Shown here piece by piece: positions 1 to 7,249 of a stretch of DNA of 7,249 nucleotides. Origin of the DNA: JBFJWU01 sp041623475 [NCBI: bacterium] (GTDB lineage Bacteria > J088); contig JBFJWU010000175.1 in the NCBI GenBank assembly GCA_041623475.1, positions 1-7,249 on the forward strand, given 5' to 3'. Numbering within the stretch: position 1 is the first letter of the stretch; every line of letters starts with the position of its first letter. The notes under the pieces were generated by a model. It had not been told where the DNA came from. It saw only the letters and a list, made by a program, of their open reading frames with translations, and did no database searches. A program made the translations under genes and the position numbers.

Positions 1-491
1 TACGTCCGAACGGCAATCGGGTCCCCGGCACGCAATTTCCGCATGTGCTCTATCCAGGATGCCTCTGCGTCCGGTAAATCCAAAGGATGTCGACCATCCT
101 GAATCTGGGCTTCTTCTGCCGCAATAGCAGCGCCAAACGACAGGGGCTCCATTCCACGTGCGTGGAACATCCACCAGGACGAAAATGCCCGGCTGACGGG
201 ATCTCGCAGCAGGACGAGCAATTTGGCGTCAGGGGTTTCTTTACGGATGCGCGCGGCAACATATGGAACAGCAAGGTAGCTGGGCGTCGCCTCTCCTGCG
301 GCCGTTTCGTGGGTCCAGTTAGCAAAGTGGTCGCCCAGGTATCTGTGCATGCCGTCTCTGTGATTTGCATCAAAGAAATGTGGCTCCTTGCGTGCTGACA
401 GGTAGACATCGGGATGCGACGAAATAAATTGTGCAAGTGCCGTCGTCCCGCATTTGGGCGCGCCAAGGATGAAAAATGTGGGTTTTCGCAT
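1..491 (-). CDS. PAPS-dependent sulfotransferase, N-terminal 163 residues (truncated by window edge)
   Basis: The reading frame starts at an ATG and stays open to the window edge, so the C-terminus is missing. The start of the protein (FFILGAPKCGTTAL, residues 6-19) is the 5'-phosphosulfate-binding P-loop-like motif of the NodH / heparan-sulfate N-sulfotransferase type (Sulfotransfer_1 fold), with Lys13 as the expected catalytic/PAPS-contacting lysine. It is followed by the family motif ARKEPHFF (33-40). The 3'-phosphate-binding segment LLRDPVSRAFSSWWMF (94-109) supplies the expected Arg96 and Ser104. No signal peptide or membrane segment is visible, so it should be cytoplasmic, transferring sulfate from PAPS to a carbohydrate hydroxyl. 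The acceptor is unknown; the neighbouring glycan genes make a saccharide likely. The start is supported by the motif lying 5 residues in, as in the family, although no strong Shine-Dalgarno sequence precedes it. It is separated from the upstream gene by 112 bases, so it may be transcribed separately. Confidence 0.88.
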   Translation of the reverse strand, partial: MRKPTFFILGAPKCGTTALAQFISSHPDVYLSARKEPHFFDANHRDGMHRYLGDHFANWTHETAAGEATPSYLAVPYVAARIRKETPDAKLLVLLRDPVSRAFSSWWMFHARGMEPLSFGAAIAAEEAQIQDGRHPLDLPDAEASWIEHMRKLRAGDPIAVRT

Positions 492-603: not shown

Positions 604-2190
604 TCAAGGCTGGCCGTTTCGCTGCCAGGAAAGCGCCTCAAGCCGCATTCCCGCAGCAACGGCGGCATTCGATAATTCTACATCGCTGCGGCGATAGAGA
701 TTCAGCACATAATCCGCTCTAAACGTCACTTTAAATACATACTGATATTGCTGCTTGAAATCAGGGTTGTCATAGAACGCATGCATCCCGCGCCGTCGTT
801 TCCGGGAGTCGTCGGGGCGCCGGGGTAAAACGATAAACGACGGCCGTTGCGCAAGGAGCCGCCGGACACTGTATTGCTTCAGGGCAGTTTCCCGATTCAA
901 GAGCCCTTCGGGGTGAATATCGATAATTTTGTCGATGTGCGAGTAATAAGGAACGGCTCCCATATCCCACCCGGCGTACGAAGCATCCGCCGGCGCGTAT
1001 TCCTTCAACCACTTCCCCAGCGAGATATGGGCGTGTTCCAGCCGCTCAGTATATTCTTGCTGACCTCGGTATTCGTCGGTCCAGGTCAGCTGCGCAAGGC
1101 ACAGAAGGGTGGTCAAAATAACGATTCCGGCCCGGCTGGCAGCCAGGGAAATTCTGGACAGTAATCGACGCTGCAAAGTTACAATTGATATTGCAGTCAA
1201 GCACGTCCAAAACGGCAGCATCGGTACTTCGTAGCGAAATCCGGGCATCCATTCGCGGTAGGCGGTAAACGCAGATACCAGCAAGGCCACAAACGCACCT
1301 GCCACGACTAAACGAGGCCAGATATTCCGCAAGCCAGACAGTGCTTGTCCAGCAACAATCACGACGGCAAACGGGATCATCGTGATCAACAGACCGGACA
1401 TTTCGTTCAGGCGGGACCAGATATGCAGCAGCGACCAATCCGCCTGCTTTGCATAGAAGGTGTTGGGAAACGGAAGTCCGTAATAGTTCCACCGCCAGCA
1501 AAAATAGAGGCCATAGACGAGCCCGAAAATGAAAATTCCCGGCGTAAGACAACGGAAGGCCCGCCGCCAATCTTGTCCATCGTCGCGGTCGAAACAGTAC
1601 CGGACTATGAGCATAGCCAGGCAGGCAAGGCTAAAACCCACGCCTTCCGGTCGACTCAGCGCCAGCGCCAACAGGAAGATAAAGGATCCGATATGTGACC
1701 TGCGATCGTCATATTCTGCCAATAATCGTGTGACCGCCATCACAGCAAAGAACGTAAACATGGGTGTTTCCAGTCCCCCGACGGACCAGAGTGCCAGAAA
1801 AGGACTGGTGCCCATCAATATGGTGGCCGATGCCGCTCCGCCTCTGGTCGTATAGCAACGGCTGGCAAGCCATCCGGTTGCCAATACCGTGCCAAGACCG
1901 AATGCGATTCCCATTACTTTGACGGCGTGGACGACGGCGTCATCGCCGAACCCGATTGTGAACAGGAGAGCCTGGAGTGCGACCCAAAGAAAGTTAGTGT
2001 ATCCCTCCACTGGTGGGTCTCCGCCAAGGCTGAATCTTAATCCATGGCCGTCCGCGAAATTTCGAGCGTACCGGAGCGATATAAATGTGTCATCGATGGT
2101 AAAGCCGTAGAAAATAATGCACAGCGTCGCAAAAACAACAGCCGAAAAAACAACTATCCATCTGCAGGTTTTGCTGTTCAGGGCAAACAT
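604..2190 (-). CDS. GT-C fold membrane glycosyltransferase, AftB-like / GT39-like
   Basis: A 528-residue polytopic protein. An N-terminal membrane segment (about 11-29) leads into a first periplasmic loop with the GT-C acidic pair ([17 protein letters not shown], Asp33-Asp34), then VEGYTNFLW (61-69), GGLETPMF (138-145), SRPEG (179-183) and [13 protein letters not shown] (236-248). This motif series is what I associate with the mycobacterial AftB-type arabinofuranosyltransferases and their Gram-negative relatives. About ten more membrane segments run to residue 370. A soluble, probably periplasmic, C-terminal domain (about 373-528) follows. GT-C enzymes use polyprenyl-phosphate-linked donors and act on the outer face of the inner membrane, so the likely role is adding a sugar to a glycan that has already been flipped. 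A Wzy-like polymerase role cannot be excluded. It follows the flippase by 31 bases, presumably in the same operon. No strong ribosome binding site precedes the ATG, but the start gives a sensible N-terminus. Donor and acceptor cannot be read from the sequence. Confidence 0.82.
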
Positions 2191-2221: not shown

Positions 2222-3520
2222 TCAAGCTGGATTCCCGGAAACGGATACGAACCGTCCGATCTTGTTGTGTTTGTATATTGCTGTTTTCGCAAAAAGCATC
2301 CAGGCAAAAGCGACCAGTTGTGCAACTGCGATTCCTTTTGCGTTCGGCCAATGGGAAAGCGCCAATGCGACAACGGTGAATACCAATAGTGAAGTGGCAT
2401 GGCAGAAAACAATACTTCGATCCTTGCCAGCCGCATACAGGCCGTAATGCGGCACCATGCTGATGCCATACAGAACCGTTCCGGAAACCAGAATCCACAA
2501 GACCGGGATGTGCTCAGCGTAGATCGATTTACCGGTCCACTCCATGACCCAGGGTGCTGCAAGGATAATCCCGATTGCCATCACCAGACTTACTGACGTT
2601 GCGGACCACGCGAATTCCCGCATGGTCCGCTTGTATGTCATTTGATCGCGAGCCGAATAGGCGGCCACAAGCCTTGGGTAAACAAAGGACGATACCGAGA
2701 AGCCCAGGAAGCTGATCACCAGAATGGCGATTCCCGAATAGAAGACATAGGCTCCCAGGATATCTTCTCCTGCGATACCCTGGACCATATATCGGTCAAA
2801 AGTTGTAATACCCTTCAAGCAAAGGGTCGAGACCAGGAACAGCAAGCCAACGGGATAGCCGCGCAGAATCCATTGCCAGTCGATTGTCCACCGTTTCCAT
2901 GGGGTTGCCCGTTTGACAATTATTGCGGCACCGCCGATGCAGGCAAAGGCAGCTCCGATAAGCCACCCGACAAAAATGGTTTCCAGCGTCCGGAGCTCGG
3001 GTGTCTTCCACATCACTGCCAGAACAACCCAGACCCAGATTCCCCGTCGGAAAAACAGGATCCAACTGGCCCATAACTGGTGTTGCATCGCGATGAGCGC
3101 CCGATTCAGTTCCTGCGCGAAATGTTCAAAGAACAGCAGACCCAAAAACCACCACATCATTTCCATGGGCAGCAACCCAAGCCAGAATAATATGAACTGA
3201 ACGGGGAAGATAATCAGATAGAGTGCTGCCGTTGCGAGCAGTTGATGTTGCAGGACAAATGACCAACGTGAACGTGGTTCGGACAAGAGTTCACGTTGAG
3301 CGTAAGTGTAGTAATCCCCGCCTACCAGCAGAACACCGTAATTGATCGTGGCAATAAAAAGTCCCAGCAAGCCCAACTGGGCGGGTTCCAATATCCGGGC
3401 ACAGCCCATGATCAGGGCAAACCTGCTGAATATCGTGATCCCCCGAAGCCCGACATTGGAACCGCGGACAATCAATACCTGCCCGATTCCGGACGCCTGC
3501 TTTTTCATAATCTGCGCCAT
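2222..3520 (-). CDS. Wzx-like polysaccharide/oligosaccharide flippase (MOP superfamily)
   Basis: A 432-residue, very hydrophobic protein with roughly twelve predicted membrane segments (about 26-40, 46-66, 92-116, 120-134, 151-170, 181-203, 222-238, 252-276, 303-324, 335-352, 370-388, 395-414), the normal size and layout for Wzx/RfbX-type exporters. The segment FDRYMVQGIAGEDILGAYVFY (241-261) resembles the conserved 'DR...G...G.Y' stretch at the start of the second half of these transporters. Such proteins move undecaprenyl-diphosphate-linked glycans from the cytoplasmic to the periplasmic leaflet. The gene begins 27 bases after the pseI stop, with AGGG five bases before the ATG. An in-frame ATG at codon 5 has no comparable upstream signal, so the first ATG is preferred. 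Position immediately after the pse genes suggests the exported glycan contains the pseudaminic acid made by them. Substrate is inferred from context; sequence identity in this family is too low to tell. Confidence 0.85.
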   Translation of the reverse strand: MAQIMKKQASGIGQVLIVRGSNVGLRGITIFSRFALIMGCARILEPAQLGLLGLFIATINYGVLLVGGDYYTYAQRELLSEPRSRWSFVLQHQLLATAALYLIIFPVQFILFWLGLLPMEMMWWFLGLLFFEHFAQELNRALIAMQHQLWASWILFFRRGIWVWVVLAVMWKTPELRTLETIFVGWLIGAAFACIGGAAIIVKRATPWKRWTIDWQWILRGYPVGLLFLVSTLCLKGITTFDRYMVQGIAGEDILGAYVFYSGIAILVISFLGFSVSSFVYPRLVAAYSARDQMTYKRTMREFAWSATSVSLVMAIGIILAAPWVMEWTGKSIYAEHIPVLWILVSGTVLYGISMVPHYGLYAAGKDRSIVFCHATSLLVFTVVALALSHWPNAKGIAVAQLVAFAWMLFAKTAIYKHNKIGRFVSVSGNPA

Positions 3521-3547: not shown

Positions 3548-4606
3548 TCAGGGTCCGCCGTCGATCAGATCCCAGGCCAAAGGTGTACCACGGCTAATGT
3601 CCGACTTCGCTCGACGGCCGATAATATCGGAAAGATATCGGGGCGGCAATCCATGTCCGGGACGAATACTGCGAATATTTGCCCGGGTAAGTTCCTGGCC
3701 CGCTTCAATGTCTTGTACCACGTATAACGACCGCCGGAAAATTCGACTGTTTTCCTCGACGGGTTTGCGCTGATAACCGGCGGAGCCGAGTGCTTCCCAG
3801 GCTACTTTGGATTCCCGGCACAAGGTTGCCAGTTCTTCTGGTTGCAATGAAAATGCCGCATCCGGCCCGCCGTCGACCCGTCGGAATGTAAAATGTTTTT
3901 CAATCAAGGATGCGCCCAATGCAACGGCCGCAATTGCGGTCGTAGTGCCCAGGGTATGGTCGGAAAGACCAATAACACAGCCAAACCGTTCGGCCATGTC
4001 CGCTATCGTTCTTAGATTAGACTGTTCCGGGGGCGTGGGATATCCACTGATGCAGTGCAACAGTGCCAATTGCGAGCATCCGTTTTCTTTCGCCGTTTCT
4101 GTGGCTTCCTGAATCTCATCCTGGTCAGCCATACCTGTTGAAATGATCATCGGCTTGCCGGTTGAGGCGGCGTAAGCAATTAATTCCAGGTCGACTGCTT
4201 CAAAAGATGCAATCTTGTATGCGGGCGCCCCAAGGTTTTCGAGCAAGTCGACTGCGGTTGTGTCAAATGGGGAACTGAAAATGGTCAATCCGCGCTCGCG
4301 CGCCCGATTAAATATTGGTTCGTGCCAATCCCATGGCGTATGCGCCCATTCATAGAGTTCGTACAAAGATTTCCCTGCCCACGGCCCCTCGGTAATCTGG
4401 AAATCGGGTTGGTCGCTGTCAATAGTCAGCGTATCAGCTGTATACGTTTGGATCTTGACCGCGTCGGCACCAGCATCGCTGGCTATGTCAACTAATCGCA
4501 ATGCCTGGTCCAGGCTGCCGTTATGGTTTGCCGACAATTCGGCAATGACATATGGCGGGAATTCAGGGCCGATTAAGCGACCATCTATTTCAAGCTTATT
4601 GCTCAT
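3548..4606 (-). CDS. pseI: Pseudaminic acid synthase
   Basis: A 352-residue member of the NeuB/SpsE family that condenses 2,4-diamido-2,4,6-trideoxy-L-altrose with phosphoenolpyruvate to form pseudaminic acid in the cytoplasm. The TIM-barrel domain (about 17-275) shows the expected landmarks: YVIAELSANHNGS (19-31, Glu23, Asn27, His28), KIQTY (51-55), FSSPFD (110-115), YKIASFE (130-136), ISTGMA (155-160), HCISGYPTPPEQSNL (184-198), GLSDHT (213-218) and LIEKHFTF (234-241). The signature GGPDAAFSLQPEE (246-258) favours PseI over sialic (NeuB) or legionaminic (LegI) acid synthases. The C-terminal SAF/antifreeze-like domain (about 287-350) contains NSRIFRRSLYV and RPGHGLPP, which help bind substrate in the partner subunit of the dimer. 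Length is normal for the family. The start overlaps the end of the upstream formyltransferase gene by 11 bases, so translational coupling is likely; GAAG six bases before the ATG may serve as a weak ribosome binding site. Confidence 0.96.
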   Translation of the reverse strand: MSNKLEIDGRLIGPEFPPYVIAELSANHNGSLDQALRLVDIASDAGADAVKIQTYTADTLTIDSDQPDFQITEGPWAGKSLYELYEWAHTPWDWHEPIFNRARERGLTIFSSPFDTTAVDLLENLGAPAYKIASFEAVDLELIAYAASTGKPMIISTGMADQDEIQEATETAKENGCSQLALLHCISGYPTPPEQSNLRTIADMAERFGCVIGLSDHTLGTTTAIAAVALGASLIEKHFTFRRVDGGPDAAFSLQPEELATLCRESKVAWEALGSAGYQRKPVEENSRIFRRSLYVVQDIEAGQELTRANIRSIRPGHGLPPRYLSDIIGRRAKSDISRGTPLAWDLIDGGP

Positions 4607-5261
4607 CGCTGTCTTCTACCTTTTCGATTCGTATGGCATAAAGCTGGCCCCGGTGCCGGAAAAACGCGGGGAATCGCCGAGGGTCACAAACGCGCAGTAG
4701 GTCAAATTGTGCCGAAATAGTATTCTCCGCATCGAGTTTGCTGTCCTCCGGGGTCCGGCGCCGGTAGTAGGTGGCGTCGGCAGATTCGGGCTGAGGCTCG
4801 GGCACCACGGAGTTGAAGTTTTCGACGGCAAAGTCCATCAGCTCGATTTCGGTGGTGAAAAGCTTTTCGTTAATTTCATCGTACAGTTCGGTTCCGTCCA
4901 AATGGATCCTGCGTTTTAGCCAAATTGGGCCAGTGTCTACCGGCTCCGTTGCTTCAAGAAGCGTAACGGTCAATTCATCTGATCCATTGATTATTTCCCA
5001 TACGTGCGGGCTCCAGCCTCGGCCATCGGGAAGGTCGCTGGCATGGATGACCAACGTTTTTTTATATCGTTGGCGAACCGTTTCGCGAACGATGTCACTA
5101 CAGGAAATCAAAAAGAGCACGTCGCCCCCGTTTTCGGGCAACTCTTGAAGCCGTTGGAGCAAGTTCACGTCGTGTCCGCGGTCTTGCTGTTTGTCACACC
5201 AGCGCTCAAGAAACGGGTAGACAGGGTGCTCATCGGAGCTGCACAAAACGGCAATTTTCAT
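4596..5261 (-). CDS. Formyltransferase-family protein, predicted sugar N-formyltransferase replacing PseH
   Basis: A 221-residue protein of the methionyl-tRNA/sugar formyltransferase fold (N10-formyl-THF dependent). The core is VIHASDLPDGRGWSPHVWEI (71-90) followed by VTLLEATEPVDTGPIW (99-114), containing the expected catalytic His73 and Asp109 with the DTG turn. The segment YYRRRTPEDSKLD (165-177) matches the 'RR.P.D' stretch that follows the catalytic domain in ArnA-type and WbkC-type sugar formyltransferases. The usual catalytic Asn, two residues before the His, is Val71 here. I believe related proteins in other nonulosonic acid clusters share the 'LV.H.SDLP.G.GWSP' form, so this may be a subfamily trait. 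It starts by ATGA overlap with pseG, preceded by a run of six G three bases before the ATG, and its end overlaps pseI. This slot normally belongs to the N-acetyltransferase PseH, which is not seen here, so the predicted reaction is formylation of the 4-amine of UDP-4-amino-4,6-dideoxy-AltNAc (N-7 of the final sugar). Family call is firm; substrate is inferred. Confidence 0.87.
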   Translation of the reverse strand: MKIAVLCSSDEHPVYPFLERWCDKQQDRGHDVNLLQRLQELPENGGDVLFLISCSDIVRETVRQRYKKTLVIHASDLPDGRGWSPHVWEIINGSDELTVTLLEATEPVDTGPIWLKRRIHLDGTELYDEINEKLFTTEIELMDFAVENFNSVVPEPQPESADATYYRRRTPEDSKLDAENTISAQFDLLRVCDPRRFPAFFRHRGQLYAIRIEKVEDSDEQ

Positions 5262-6367
5262 AGTCCCCCCGTTATTGCCCGCGCTACCCTGGCAGTTCCG
5301 TTGCCGTCTACAATTGAGGACGCGCGCAGGGAAACCTCGTTTCGGTAGTCCGCCTTTGTAAGTAAACGACGCAACGGCTCAAGCAAGCGGTCTGGATTCT
5401 GCGCGACTTGCTCCGGCCGACCGACATGGATCCCTGCACCTGCCGAATCCAATTGTTCAGCAATGTAATGCTGATTGTCAGCCGTGGTGAACAAGAGGCT
5501 TGGCAGTCCCAGGCAACATCGTTCCCACGAACTTGCTCCAGCAGCACCAATAGCGATATCCACATCTGTTAATAGTCTGGCCACTTCAGTTACGCCAGAA
5601 CGAACATCGACGTGCAGATGCACGCTTTTTGCCGTTTCTTCAACCTGTTGTCGATATGGCGCATATTTCCCCAGCATGACGGTAATCTTTAAAGAAGAGT
5701 CGAACGTTGCCTCCGCGAGTTTTTCCAATACCAGCGAAGTTACGTTGTCCGCATCGACACCACCCATGTTAATCAATATGTTGCGCGGCGTAGTATTTTC
5801 CCTGCGACGTCCAAGTGCGGTTTCCCGCCATTCAGCGAACTCGGGCCTTAATAATGCGTACTTGGGACCGAGAAGTAATTCGGCACCCGCCGGAGTCAAG
5901 CTTTGATAATCTGCGTGGCTGCGGCCAAAATTTTGATCCAGCAACAGATCACAATCGTATGGACGATCGGCAAGGTCATCAATCACCGCAATTGACAACG
6001 CCTCATTTCGCAGTTGTCTATGCCAGGATTGGCCGATTCCATAGTGGTCCACAATGACCCAGTCCGCTCCGCCAAGTTCTTGTACGACAGTTCTCGTTTC
6101 GGCGGCATCGGTTTCCTGCGATGCGCCCAGCCACGTCTGATATTGTTGGCCATTTGCAGCGGTAGCATCTTGCGGGCCCGGTGGATTCAGTAAATGGACT
6201 GGAATTCCGTGTTGCCGAATCTGGTCGGCCAGGTTTCCAGGATGGTCACGACATACAAATTGAATCTCGGCTCCGCGATCCCGTAACGACTCTGACAACG
6301 TCAGACAACGTGACACGTGGCCCGTGGCAATTTCTTCCGACGCATCCGTCCGAAACAATACGCGCAT
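5258..6367 (-). CDS. pseG: UDP-2,4-diacylamido-2,4,6-trideoxy-L-altropyranose hydrolase
   Basis: A 369-residue PseG, a GT-B-like hydrolase related to MurG that removes UDP from the altrose intermediate so that PseI can use it. The N-terminus RVLFRTDASEEIATGHVSRCLTL (2-24) is the PseG signature, with His17 the expected catalytic base. Further landmarks are FVCRDHPGNL (37-46), VIVDHYGI (104-111), DDLADRPYDCDLLLDQN (130-146), LLGPKYALLRPEF (165-177), NMGGVD (200-205) and the nucleotide-binding GAAGASSWERCCLGLPSL (274-291). DGNGTAR (354-360) ends the protein. The residue before the conserved T-G-H is Ala14, where I expect Gly (GTGH). Length fits the longer proteobacterial form; the Campylobacter enzyme is shorter, and no acetyltransferase domain is fused. 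The gene begins 3 bases after the pseF stop, with a good GGAG ribosome binding site inside the pseF 3' end. It ends in an ATGA overlap with the formyltransferase gene. Confidence 0.95.
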   Translation of the reverse strand: MRVLFRTDASEEIATGHVSRCLTLSESLRDRGAEIQFVCRDHPGNLADQIRQHGIPVHLLNPPGPQDATAANGQQYQTWLGASQETDAAETRTVVQELGGADWVIVDHYGIGQSWHRQLRNEALSIAVIDDLADRPYDCDLLLDQNFGRSHADYQSLTPAGAELLLGPKYALLRPEFAEWRETALGRRRENTTPRNILINMGGVDADNVTSLVLEKLAEATFDSSLKITVMLGKYAPYRQQVEETAKSVHLHVDVRSGVTEVARLLTDVDIAIGAAGASSWERCCLGLPSLLFTTADNQHYIAEQLDSAGAGIHVGRPEQVAQNPDRLLEPLRRLLTKADYRNEVSLRASSIVDGNGTARVARAITGGL

Positions 6368-6370
6368 CCC

Positions 6371-7075
6371 TCAATCTCCGCCGGCCTCCAATTGTAAGGC
6401 TTGGAACATTAGCTCCGCCTGCCTCCAATCCTCATCTGTGTCAATGTCCTGTGCCAGATAACGGGGAATTTGTACGGCCACTGTATGCGACGCAAAAAAG
6501 TCCAATTTGTTTTGCCAGGCGTCCGTCGTTCCCCAGTACATCTGCCCTGCGTCATGAAAAGATTCTTCCAGGTCTTGCGAGCGTGCATTCATGTGCTCTG
6601 GCCAGAACATCTCGAGACGGTCAGCTTCGATCAGCCTGATCGCACGCTGAATGGGAAAAGGAAACGAGGTCACGGTAATTGCAAATGCGGCTTCGCAGTC
6701 ACGTAGACGGTTTAGCCCATCTCGGATGGTCTGCGGTTGCAGGAATGGAGCCGTGGCATAAATGCAACAAAATTCATCCGGAAGCACCATCTCTTGCCCC
6801 AGCGTCTTGATCGAATGCCGGATCACGGCCGCCGTCCCGGTTTCGTCGTCTGCTAATGTCTCGGGACGCTGAAACGGCACCTCCGCACCGATCGTCCTTG
6901 CGAGTTCAGCAATTTCTTCACTATCCGTTGAAACAACAACGCGATCAAAGCAATTTGAGCCAAGCGCTGCCTCAATTGGCCATGCAAGCATTGGTTTGCC
7001 GCAAAAGTCCCTGATGTTTTTGCGCGGAATGCGCTTGCTGCCGCCTCGTGCGGGTATGACCGCAATTGGCTTCAC
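6371..7075 (-). CDS. pseF: Pseudaminic acid cytidylyltransferase (CMP-Pse synthetase)
   Basis: A 234-residue NeuA/KdsB-type nucleotidyltransferase that activates pseudaminic acid with CTP to CMP-Pse. IPARGGSKRIPRKNI (7-21) is the CTP-binding loop, followed by VVVSTDSEEIAELA (46-59), FQRP (68-71), CIYATAPFL (104-112), the metal-binding region DAGQMYWG (175-182) and DIDTDEDW (210-217). The YATAPF and AGQMYWG forms favour PseF over NeuA. I place the start at a GTG whose last two bases and the following A form the TGA stop of pseC (GTGA overlap). An ATG 32 codons further upstream lies inside pseC in another frame and would add residues that do not resemble the family, so it is rejected. The ribosome binding site before the GTG is weak (AGAG about ten bases away), which fits translational coupling to pseC. 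pseG follows after 3 bases. Confidence 0.95.
   Translation of the reverse strand: MKPIAVIPARGGSKRIPRKNIRDFCGKPMLAWPIEAALGSNCFDRVVVSTDSEEIAELARTIGAEVPFQRPETLADDETGTAAVIRHSIKTLGQEMVLPDEFCCIYATAPFLQPQTIRDGLNRLRDCEAAFAITVTSFPFPIQRAIRLIEADRLEMFWPEHMNARSQDLEESFHDAGQMYWGTTDAWQNKLDFFASHTVAVQIPRYLAQDIDTDEDWRQAELMFQALQLEAGGD
6376..6379 (-). promoter_or_regulatory. Ribosome binding site of pseG, inside pseF
   Basis: GGAG on the minus strand, eight bases before the pseG ATG and within the last codons of pseF. It is the clearest Shine-Dalgarno sequence in the window and fixes the pseG start, which also matches the conserved PseG N-terminus. Confidence 0.7.
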
Positions 7076-7249
7076 GTAATGAGTTTCTCTAACGTGGCAA
7101 TAACGTAGTCCTGGTCGTCTTCCGACAAATCCGGGTACATTGGCAGGCTGATGGCTTCCGCATAATAACACTCGGCTTCGGGGAAATCGCCCCTCGCAAA
7201 TCCCAGGGACTGGTAGTAAGGTTGCAGGTGTACCGGGATGTAATGCAAA
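7072..7249 (-). CDS. pseC: UDP-4-amino-4,6-dideoxy-AltNAc transaminase, C-terminal 58 residues (5' end outside window)
   Basis: The frame is open from the window edge to a TGA. It reads LHYIPVHLQPYYQSLGF at the edge and continues GDFPEAECYYAEAISLPMYPDL. These are the closing motifs of the DegT/DnrJ/EryC1 (sugar aminotransferase) family, in the form typical of PseC. PseC is a PLP enzyme that transfers an amino group from glutamate to C-4 of the keto sugar made by PseB. The active-site lysine and most of the protein lie outside the window. The stop overlaps the pseF GTG start by four bases. The immediately downstream pseF, pseG and pseI strongly support pseC over other DegT-family aminotransferases. 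pseB would be expected further upstream, beyond this window. Confidence 0.92.
   Translation of the reverse strand, partial: LHYIPVHLQPYYQSLGFARGDFPEAECYYAEAISLPMYPDLSEDDQDYVIATLEKLIT

What the first reader, a model, noticed from the sequence alone, without database searches (positions are those of the whole stretch)
4596..5261. A formyltransferase occupies the PseH slot: predicted 7-N-formyl pseudaminic acid pathway
Seen: pseC, pseF, pseG and pseI surround a formyltransferase-fold gene joined to them by an ATGA overlap and an 11-base overlap, and no GNAT acetyltransferase gene is present. Known: PseH acetylates the 4-amine of UDP-4-amino-4,6-dideoxy-AltNAc, which becomes N-7 of pseudaminic acid; a 7-N-formyl pseudaminic acid is known from the Pseudomonas aeruginosa 1244 pilin/O-antigen glycan. 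Inference: this cluster makes Pse5Ac7Fo or a close relative, with formylation before PseG.
Basis: partly seen in the sequence, partly recalled or inferred. Interest (0 to 1): 0.72.

Follow-up and report, generated by a model that had tools for sequence, protein, structure and literature searches.

The report
Formyltransferase replacing PseH in pseudaminic cluster
A bacterial gene cluster for a sialic-acid-like surface sugar carries a formyl-adding enzyme exactly where relatives carry an acetyl-adding one, so it probably makes a formylated version of that sugar; the idea has a known precedent, but this is a separate and widespread enzyme family.

Summary
On the minus strand the window reads pseC (cut), pseF, pseG, formyltransferase (FT, 221 aa, 4596-5261), pseI, with the stated 4- and 11-base overlaps and no GNAT gene. 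FT has a full formyltransferase fold.

A search by FT sequence found 118 relatives; 80 loci were kept, and 75 have PseG just before and PseI just after FT. In a sample drawn by PseI (104 loci, 70 with PseG), FT is in 8, a GNAT (PseH-like) in 50, both in 1 (p 4e-4; p 0.004 without the two genomes on which the draw was centred). On a PseI tree the two swap at least 16 times.

Three things temper it. The principle is already known (PseJ; solved structures, paper recalled). Sixteen of the 80 FT loci have a GNAT within 6.5 kb, one fused to FT. All 82 FT sequences lack the canonical catalytic Asn.

New here: a second, distant pseudaminic formyltransferase family, common in Proteobacteria; a probable misannotation in Aeromonas ('glucuronic acid dehydrogenase'); and a further formyltransferase that in this sample always sits with a PIG-L deacetylase.

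The parts
4596..5261 (-). Formyltransferase (FT), 221 aa, in the slot between pseG and pseI; predicted UDP-4-amino-4,6-dideoxy-L-AltNAc N-formyltransferase
   Evidence: Pfam Formyl_trans_N; AF2 mean pLDDT 96.3; best structural match 1zgh Z 21.4, ArnA about 18.6; 48-row alignment A2
5258..6367 (-). pseG, UDP-sugar hydrolase, 369 aa; last 4 bases overlap FT (ATGA)
   Evidence: NCBIfam PseG 299.4 bits, cut-off 153.55; overlap
3548..4606 (-). pseI, pseudaminic acid synthase, 352 aa; first 11 bases overlap the end of FT
   Evidence: NCBIfam PseI 507.5 bits, cut-off 340.25; overlap
6371..7075 (-). pseF, pseudaminic acid cytidylyltransferase, 234 aa (GTG start)
   Evidence: NCBIfam PseF 321.6 bits, cut-off 205.7
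7075..7249 (-). pseC, last 58 codons only, cut by the window end
   Evidence: NCBIfam PseC 65 bits over profile 325-379 of 380
2222..3520 (-). Wzx-like polysaccharide flippase, 432 aa
   Evidence: Pfam Polysacc_synt 26.0 bits, just under cut-off 28.2; similar genes near pse in some FT loci
604..2190 (-). 528-aa protein, possible glycosyltransferase (context only)
   Evidence: weak NCBIfam LA3751_2_3_fam match, 34.3 bits, cut-off 200; no Pfam match
3..491 (-). Sulfotransferase, cut by the window start (context only)
   Evidence: Pfam Sulfotransfer_3 53.2 bits

Best explanation
FT is a sugar N-formyltransferase that does PseH's step with a different acyl group. PseB and PseC make UDP-4-amino-4,6-dideoxy-beta-L-AltNAc (established pathway; pseB not in the window). 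FT moves a formyl group, presumably from N10-formyl-tetrahydrofolate, onto the 4-amine (inferred). PseG removes UDP, PseI condenses with pyruvate and PseF adds CMP (inferred from strong family matches). The product would be CMP-Pse5Ac7Fo, residue mass about 302 instead of about 316 for Pse5Ac7Ac (own arithmetic). The flippase-like and sulfotransferase genes downstream suggest a surface polysaccharide rather than flagellin (weak inference).
For: Gene order and overlaps. Of 80 loci found by FT sequence, 75 have PseG ending and PseI starting within 700 bp of FT, 2 PseG only, 2 PseI only, 1 neither. PseI-drawn sample: of 70 loci with PseG, FT and GNAT within 6.5 kb: both 1, FT only 7, GNAT only 49, neither 13, Fisher p 4e-4; within 1.5 kb before PseI: 1, 7, 41, 21, p 0.006. 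Without L147 and L193, whose genomes were the centres of the draw and were known to have FT: p 0.004 and 0.027. At least 16 FT/GNAT changes on a 132-row PseI tree. Ten of ten listed locus pairs with PseI 73-82% identical show FT against GNAT between PseG and PseI, the GNAT fused to PseG in four. Aeromonas FGI subgroups IB and IC differ by PseH against another gene between pseG and pseI (PMC7874193, most of section 16); A. bivalvium, named there in IC, has FT in that place. Fold and invariant His73 and Asp109, 82 of 82. Pse5Ac7Fo exists in nature: Pseudoalteromonas distincta KMM 638 (passages).
Against: 16 of the 80 FT loci have a GNAT within 6.5 kb on the same strand; among the 45 with contiguous C-F-G-FT it is 6: two fused (L044 to FT, L071 to PseG) and four more than 2 kb downstream of pseI. 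In L008, L029, L034, L043, L050 and L064 a GNAT follows pseI directly. L044 fuses FT to a GNAT that passes the PseH cut-off, and L170 fuses them in the other order, which pure replacement does not explain. The Asn of the usual N-x-H...D site is Val, Ile, Leu or Cys in 82 of 82. 13 of 70 PseG loci have neither gene, so the slot can be empty or filled by something not looked for. With the centre genomes left out the exclusion is weaker (p 0.004 and 0.027). No chemistry, no genome of the window's organism, and no FT locus was tied to an organism of known Pse5Ac7Fo structure.
Confidence: 0.76

Rival explanations
1. FT formylates a different amine: N-5 of the sugar after removal of its acetyl group, or an amine on another sugar of the same glycan, while an unseen PseH elsewhere acetylates N-7.
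For: In L071 FT is fused to a PIG-L deacetylase, and FT-GNAT fusions exist. The window is cut inside pseC and its genome is not held.
Against: A PIG-L gene lies near FT in 1 of 9 FT loci of the PseI-drawn sample and 1 of the 80 FT loci within 6.5 kb. Deacetylases instead go with a second formyltransferase, FT2 (8 of 8). Curated PseH over cut-off in 1 of 50 FT genomes, and that one is the fusion, though that cut-off is insensitive: 10 of 48 GNAT-slot genomes.
Confidence: 0.14
2. FT keeps the fold but not the reaction: it lost the catalytic Asn and now hydrolyses formyl groups, transfers another group or has a structural role in a PseG/PseI complex.
For: Asn replaced in 82 of 82 sequences; good structural matches include a formyl-THF hydrolase domain (4qpd, Z 18.0) and HypX (Z 19.6).
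Against: His73 and Asp109 are invariant, Asp76 is kept in 79 of 82, and whole motifs such as GWSP are invariant, which argues for an active enzyme. The swaps with an acetyltransferase point to acyl transfer. The FT2 sequences whose motif could be read (8 of 9) show the same Asn loss.
Confidence: 0.07
3. Ordinary orthologue of PseJ, with nothing to add beyond the published pathway.
For: PDB entries 6ci2, 6ci4, 6ci5, 6edk are named formyltransferase PseJ and are homologous. The published PseJ pathway (recalled) leads to 7-formamido Pse.
Against: PseJ scores 27 bits against the family profile, against 73.7 for 1zgh and about 60 for ArnA, so it is not the nearest relative.
Confidence: 0.03

Closest known systems
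PseJ of Anoxybacillus (PDB 6ci2, 6ci4, 6ci5, 6edk; organism recalled)
   Same: Named formyltransferase of a Pse pathway; recalled: acts on the UDP-sugar after PseC and leads to a 7-formamido Pse derivative.
   Different: Only 27 bits to the FT profile, far below 1zgh and ArnA; from a Gram-positive (recalled), while most FT loci kept here are from Proteobacteria.
PseH (TIGR03585), GNAT acetyltransferase of the pathway
   Same: Sits between pseG and pseI in related clusters; predicted same acceptor amine.
   Different: Unrelated fold and donor (acetyl-CoA, established knowledge); FT is a Formyl_trans_N protein.
1zgh, 'methionyl-tRNA formyltransferase' of Clostridium thermocellum, and the FT2 genes found here
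   Same: Closest solved structure, Z 21.4, 208 residues, 20% identity; same replacement of the catalytic Asn in FT2.
   Different: Two FT2 genes scanned as such carry Pfam Formyl_trans_C_2, and so does the FT2 part of a fusion; FT does not. FT2 sits with a PIG-L deacetylase.
ArnA formyltransferase domain (1yrw, 2bln)
   Same: UDP-4-amino-sugar N-formyltransferase; same fold, Z about 18.5; about 60 bits.
   Different: ArnA has the Asn (N-L-H in the alignment) and a second domain acting on UDP-glucuronic acid (model name); FT has 221 residues and one domain.
Geobacillus flagellin islands (PMC5109656, passages)
   Same: PseC, F, G, I without PseH reported in types II-IV, and a formyltransferase (fmt2) in the type III strains.
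   Different: The paper does not link fmt2 to the PseH step in the passages seen; no sequence was compared here.

Membership tests
Formyltetrahydrofolate-dependent formyltransferase superfamily | Formyl_trans_N domain and fold | tested here: met
   39.6 bits, cut-off 26.1; AF2 pLDDT 96.3; 1zgh Z 21.4, ArnA Z 18.5-18.6 over 207-210 residues
Formyltetrahydrofolate-dependent formyltransferase superfamily | Catalytic His and Asp | tested here: met
   His73 and Asp109 in 82 of 82
Formyltetrahydrofolate-dependent formyltransferase superfamily | Catalytic Asn two residues before His (motif recalled; seen in the ArnA alignment) | tested here: not met
   Val 76, Ile 3, Leu 2, Cys 1 of 82
Formyltetrahydrofolate-dependent formyltransferase superfamily | Use of N10-formyl-THF | not testable with these tools
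   needs an assay
PseJ-type pseudaminic N-formyltransferase | Encoded in a pse cluster without a separate PseH | tested here: met
   window, as far as it reaches; 60 of 80 FT loci have PseG and PseI and no GNAT within 6.5 kb
PseJ-type pseudaminic N-formyltransferase | Closest sequence relative among solved structures is PseJ | tested here: not met
   PseJ 27 bits, 1zgh 73.7, ArnA about 60
PseJ-type pseudaminic N-formyltransferase | Structure closest to PseJ | tested here: inconclusive
   PseJ is not among the 50 rows shown, which does not exclude it
PseJ-type pseudaminic N-formyltransferase | Formylates the PseC product | not testable with these tools
   needs an assay
PseH (TIGR03585) | GNAT fold, PseH model over cut-off | tested here: not met
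   no GNAT or PseH hit in the window
ArnA | Formyltransferase fused to a domain acting on UDP-glucuronic acid | tested here: not met
   single 221-aa domain; ArnA model 57 bits, cut-off 777
Pseudaminic acid cluster | PseF, PseG and PseI over the curated cut-offs | tested here: met
Pseudaminic acid cluster | PseB and complete PseC | tested here: inconclusive
   PseC cut at the window end (65 bits); pseB would lie outside

The most novel reading that the evidence does not exclude
Pse clusters carry an exchangeable N-acyl module. One formyltransferase family without the catalytic Asn (FT, the window's) has repeatedly traded places with PseH to set formyl or acetyl at N-7. A second Asn-less one (FT2), found here only with a PIG-L deacetylase, strips and reformylates N-5. 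Fusions (FT-GNAT, PIG-L-FT, FT2-GNAT) combine both, so the N-acyl pattern of a strain's surface Pse could be read from its cluster. Both families would work with a catalytic site different from the textbook Asn-His-Asp triad.
Probability: 0.4. Interest if true: 0.6.

Novelty: new variant of a known kind. Interest (0 to 1): 0.43.

Why it matters
Pseudaminic acid is a surface and flagellar sugar in many bacteria, and its N-acyl groups shape recognition by antibodies and phages (general knowledge). A clean gene marker for 7-N-formyl would let formylated Pse be predicted from genomes, would correct annotations such as the Aeromonas 'glucuronic acid dehydrogenase', and offers a testable case of one biosynthetic slot filled repeatedly by two unrelated acyltransferases. 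The missing Asn also makes the family a test of how formyltransferases work.

Tried and rejected
Sinorhizobium plasmid hits (27-30% identity among the rows listed) were checked in two annotated loci and lie in another polysaccharide region without annotated pse genes; two further loci fetched had no annotation. Not used. Phage-collection hits (12 records, 23-33%) were not followed. Whole-genome PseH counting alone was rejected as evidence: generic GNATs match in 42 of 50 FT genomes and 13 of 14 control genomes, and the curated cut-off finds only 10 of 48 GNAT-slot genomes. FT plus GNAT in one locus was looked into: in two noncanonical loci examined, L008 and L013, extra genes (class III aminotransferase, aldo-keto reductase) are present, so those sugars may carry more modifications; the fusions stay unexplained. 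PseJ's residues at the active site could not be read, because no alignment with it was printed.

Literature: nine searches. In the listings and passages I saw, no paper describes this proteobacterial family as a Pse formyltransferase; most subscription papers are not held. The PseJ paper (Reimer and colleagues, 2018) is recalled; a DOI typed from recall was not held. Papers seen only as passages: PMC7371886, PMC5109656, PMC13317340, PMC6137143, PMC7281560 (reference list only), PMC3210612, PMC6222762, PMC3765264, PMC6388019. PMC7874193: passages and part 1 of 2 of section 16.

Rows dropped and limits of the counts: from the FT alignment of 82, the four Sinorhizobium loci and L006, a longer copy of L005. 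From the PseI tree, sample loci without PseG, without FT or GNAT, or with PseI under 280 residues, and FT loci whose PseI was too short or too far. PseI hits under the curated cut-off were not fetched. 38 of the 118 FT relatives were not kept by the tool; only 50 of the 80 FT genomes were searched for PseH. 'GNAT' means any hit of 60 bits or more to a profile that was itself built from hits in these loci. The PseI sample holds the two centre genomes G003 and G007, chosen because they have FT; the test without them is. An earlier count of flanking genes missed PseG in L031 because of an over-long ORF; one search replaces it. The contiguous C-F-G-FT count is 45 of the 77 loci that the script could judge.

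Full report
WHAT IS THERE. The minus strand of the window reads, in order of transcription: the last 58 codons of pseC (7075-7249), pseF (6371-7075), pseG (5258-6367), FT (4596-5261), pseI (3548-4606), a Wzx-like flippase (2222-3520), a 528-aa protein with a weak glycosyltransferase match (604-2190) and a cut sulfotransferase (3-491). PseF, PseG and PseI pass the NCBIfam equivalog cut-offs.

WHAT FT IS. Pfam gives Formyl_trans_N. AlphaFold2 on a 48-row alignment gave mean pLDDT 96.3, and structural comparison matched the whole chain: 1zgh Z 21.4 over 208 residues, HypX 19.6, ArnA and methionyl-tRNA formyltransferases about 18.6. A profile of the family finds 1zgh at 73.7 bits, ArnA near 60 and PseJ at 27. 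His73 and Asp109 are invariant in 82 of 82 sequences, Asp76 in 79 of 82. The Asn that precedes the His by two positions in this superfamily (motif recalled, visible in the ArnA alignment) is Val, Ile, Leu or Cys in all 82.

ITS NEIGHBOURHOOD ELSEWHERE. A scan of bacterial and archaeal genomes with FT and its phage relative as query found 118 relatives, of which the best 80 were kept (47-56% identity); most record titles are Proteobacteria, with some Verrucomicrobia, a Myxococcota and a Geobacteraceae genome among them. Of the 80, 75 have PseG ending and PseI starting within 700 bp of FT; L029 and L066 have PseG only, L069 and L071 PseI only, and L052, a 4.8 kb contig, neither. In 45 of the 77 loci that could be judged, PseC-PseF-PseG-FT is contiguous, the window's own order.

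DOES FT REPLACE PSEH? To avoid sampling by FT, PseI was searched in 369 genomes of the class of an Aliivibrio and 385 of the class of a Bradyrhizobium; 104 loci over the cut-off were fetched and annotated with profiles built here. Of the 70 with PseG nearby, FT is in 8 and a GNAT in 50; both in 1, neither in 13 (Fisher p 4e-4; p 0.006 if only the 1.5 kb before PseI counts). The two centre genomes were known to carry FT; without them the values are p 0.004 and 0.027. On a 132-row PseI tree, FT and GNAT change places at least 16 times; the tree is a quick one with 53 of 125 inner branches weak, and well-supported branches force fewer changes (9 for FT, 5 for GNAT, each against the rest). The ten best non-overlapping FT/GNAT pairs have PseI 73-82% identical and differ by FT against GNAT between PseG and PseI, the GNAT being fused to PseG in four. 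Two unrelated acyltransferases trading one place in one operon is best explained by a shared acceptor, the 4-amine of the PseC product.

LITERATURE LINK. In Aeromonas flagellar glycosylation islands, subgroup IB is described with PseH between pseG and pseI, and IC with a 'glucuronic acid dehydrogenase' there; IC includes three A. bivalvium strains, whose names I did not see (PMC7874193, part of section 16). The A. bivalvium CECT 7113 locus here, L013, reads pseB, pseC, aldo-keto reductase, cytidylyltransferase, class III aminotransferase, pseG, FT, pseI, the described IC order. The dehydrogenase name is probably carried over from ArnA, whose other domain acts on UDP-glucuronic acid (inference). 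Geobacillus islands of types II-IV are reported with PseC, F, G and I but no PseH, and type III with a formyltransferase (PMC5109656, passages). Pse5Ac7Fo is reported from Pseudoalteromonas distincta KMM 638 (cited in PMC3210612 and PMC7281560), and N7-formyl Pse from the P. aeruginosa 1244 pilin glycan (PMC6222762, passages).

RESULTS AGAINST. Sixteen of 80 FT loci have a GNAT within 6.5 kb; in six of them (L008, L029, L034, L043, L050, L064) it follows pseI directly. L044 encodes an FT-GNAT fusion whose GNAT passes the PseH cut-off, L170 a GNAT-FT fusion, and L071 a PseG-GNAT fusion plus a PIG-L-FT fusion plus FT2. These may make mixed or doubly altered sugars, or be intermediates of replacement; they remain unexplained. 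PseH over the curated cut-off was found in 1 of 50 FT genomes, against 10 of 48 GNAT-slot genomes, so that cut-off is a weak instrument. Among the other seven genomes, 0 of 6 with FT alone and the one with both (G139) passed it.

A SECOND MODULE. A distinct formyltransferase (FT2, like 1zgh, Pfam Formyl_trans_C_2 in the three scanned) lies within 6.5 kb of PseI in 8 of the 104 loci, and all 8 also have a PIG-L deacetylase; one further locus has PIG-L without a detected FT2 (p 3.5e-11). Five of the eight also have a GNAT. This suggests deacetylation and reformylation at N-5 with PseH kept for N-7 (inference). L213 and L214 have the same FT2 motif and may be near copies, so the count overstates independence; FT2 and PIG-L were sought with only two and one seed sequences.

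VERDICT. The principle is known through PseJ (PDB names; pathway recalled), so this is a new variant of a known kind: a distant, widespread, Asn-less formyltransferase family in PseH's slot. Whether it transfers formyl, to which amine and at which step, needs the bench.

Noticed in passing
L162, L169, L170, L185, L195, L199, L213, L214; L071:8538-9233: A second formyltransferase family (FT2, 1zgh-like) sits with a PIG-L deacetylase in 8 of 8 PseI-sample loci that have it; possible deacetylate-then-formylate module for N-5.
   Followed up: partly
L044:9989-11206; L170:7031-8251 and 8200-9363; L071:8567-10654: Fusions FT-GNAT, GNAT-FT, FT2-GNAT and PIG-L-FT inside pse clusters.
   Followed up: partly
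L013:10001-10648 (Aeromonas bivalvium): The gene between pseG and pseI, called glucuronic acid dehydrogenase for Aeromonas subgroup IC in PMC7874193, is this formyltransferase here.
   Followed up: yes
L005:5001-5642 (same contig as L006): A viral contig carries a 42% identical FT with no pse genes detected beside it; perhaps a phage that alters its host's sugar.
   Followed up: no
PDB 1zgh: The C. thermocellum 'methionyl-tRNA formyltransferase' resembles the FT2 genes of pse clusters and may be a sugar enzyme.
   Followed up: no
29 ORFs such as L071:7052-8545; L227, L233, L234: PseG-GNAT fusions are common, and three loci fuse a GNAT to PseI.
   Followed up: no
NCBIfam TIGR03585: The curated PseH cut-off is met in only 10 of 48 genomes whose pse locus has a GNAT, so annotation pipelines may miss many PseH genes.
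   Followed up: no
window 3-491: A cut sulfotransferase gene follows the pse genes on the same strand; the glycan may also be sulfated.
   Followed up: no
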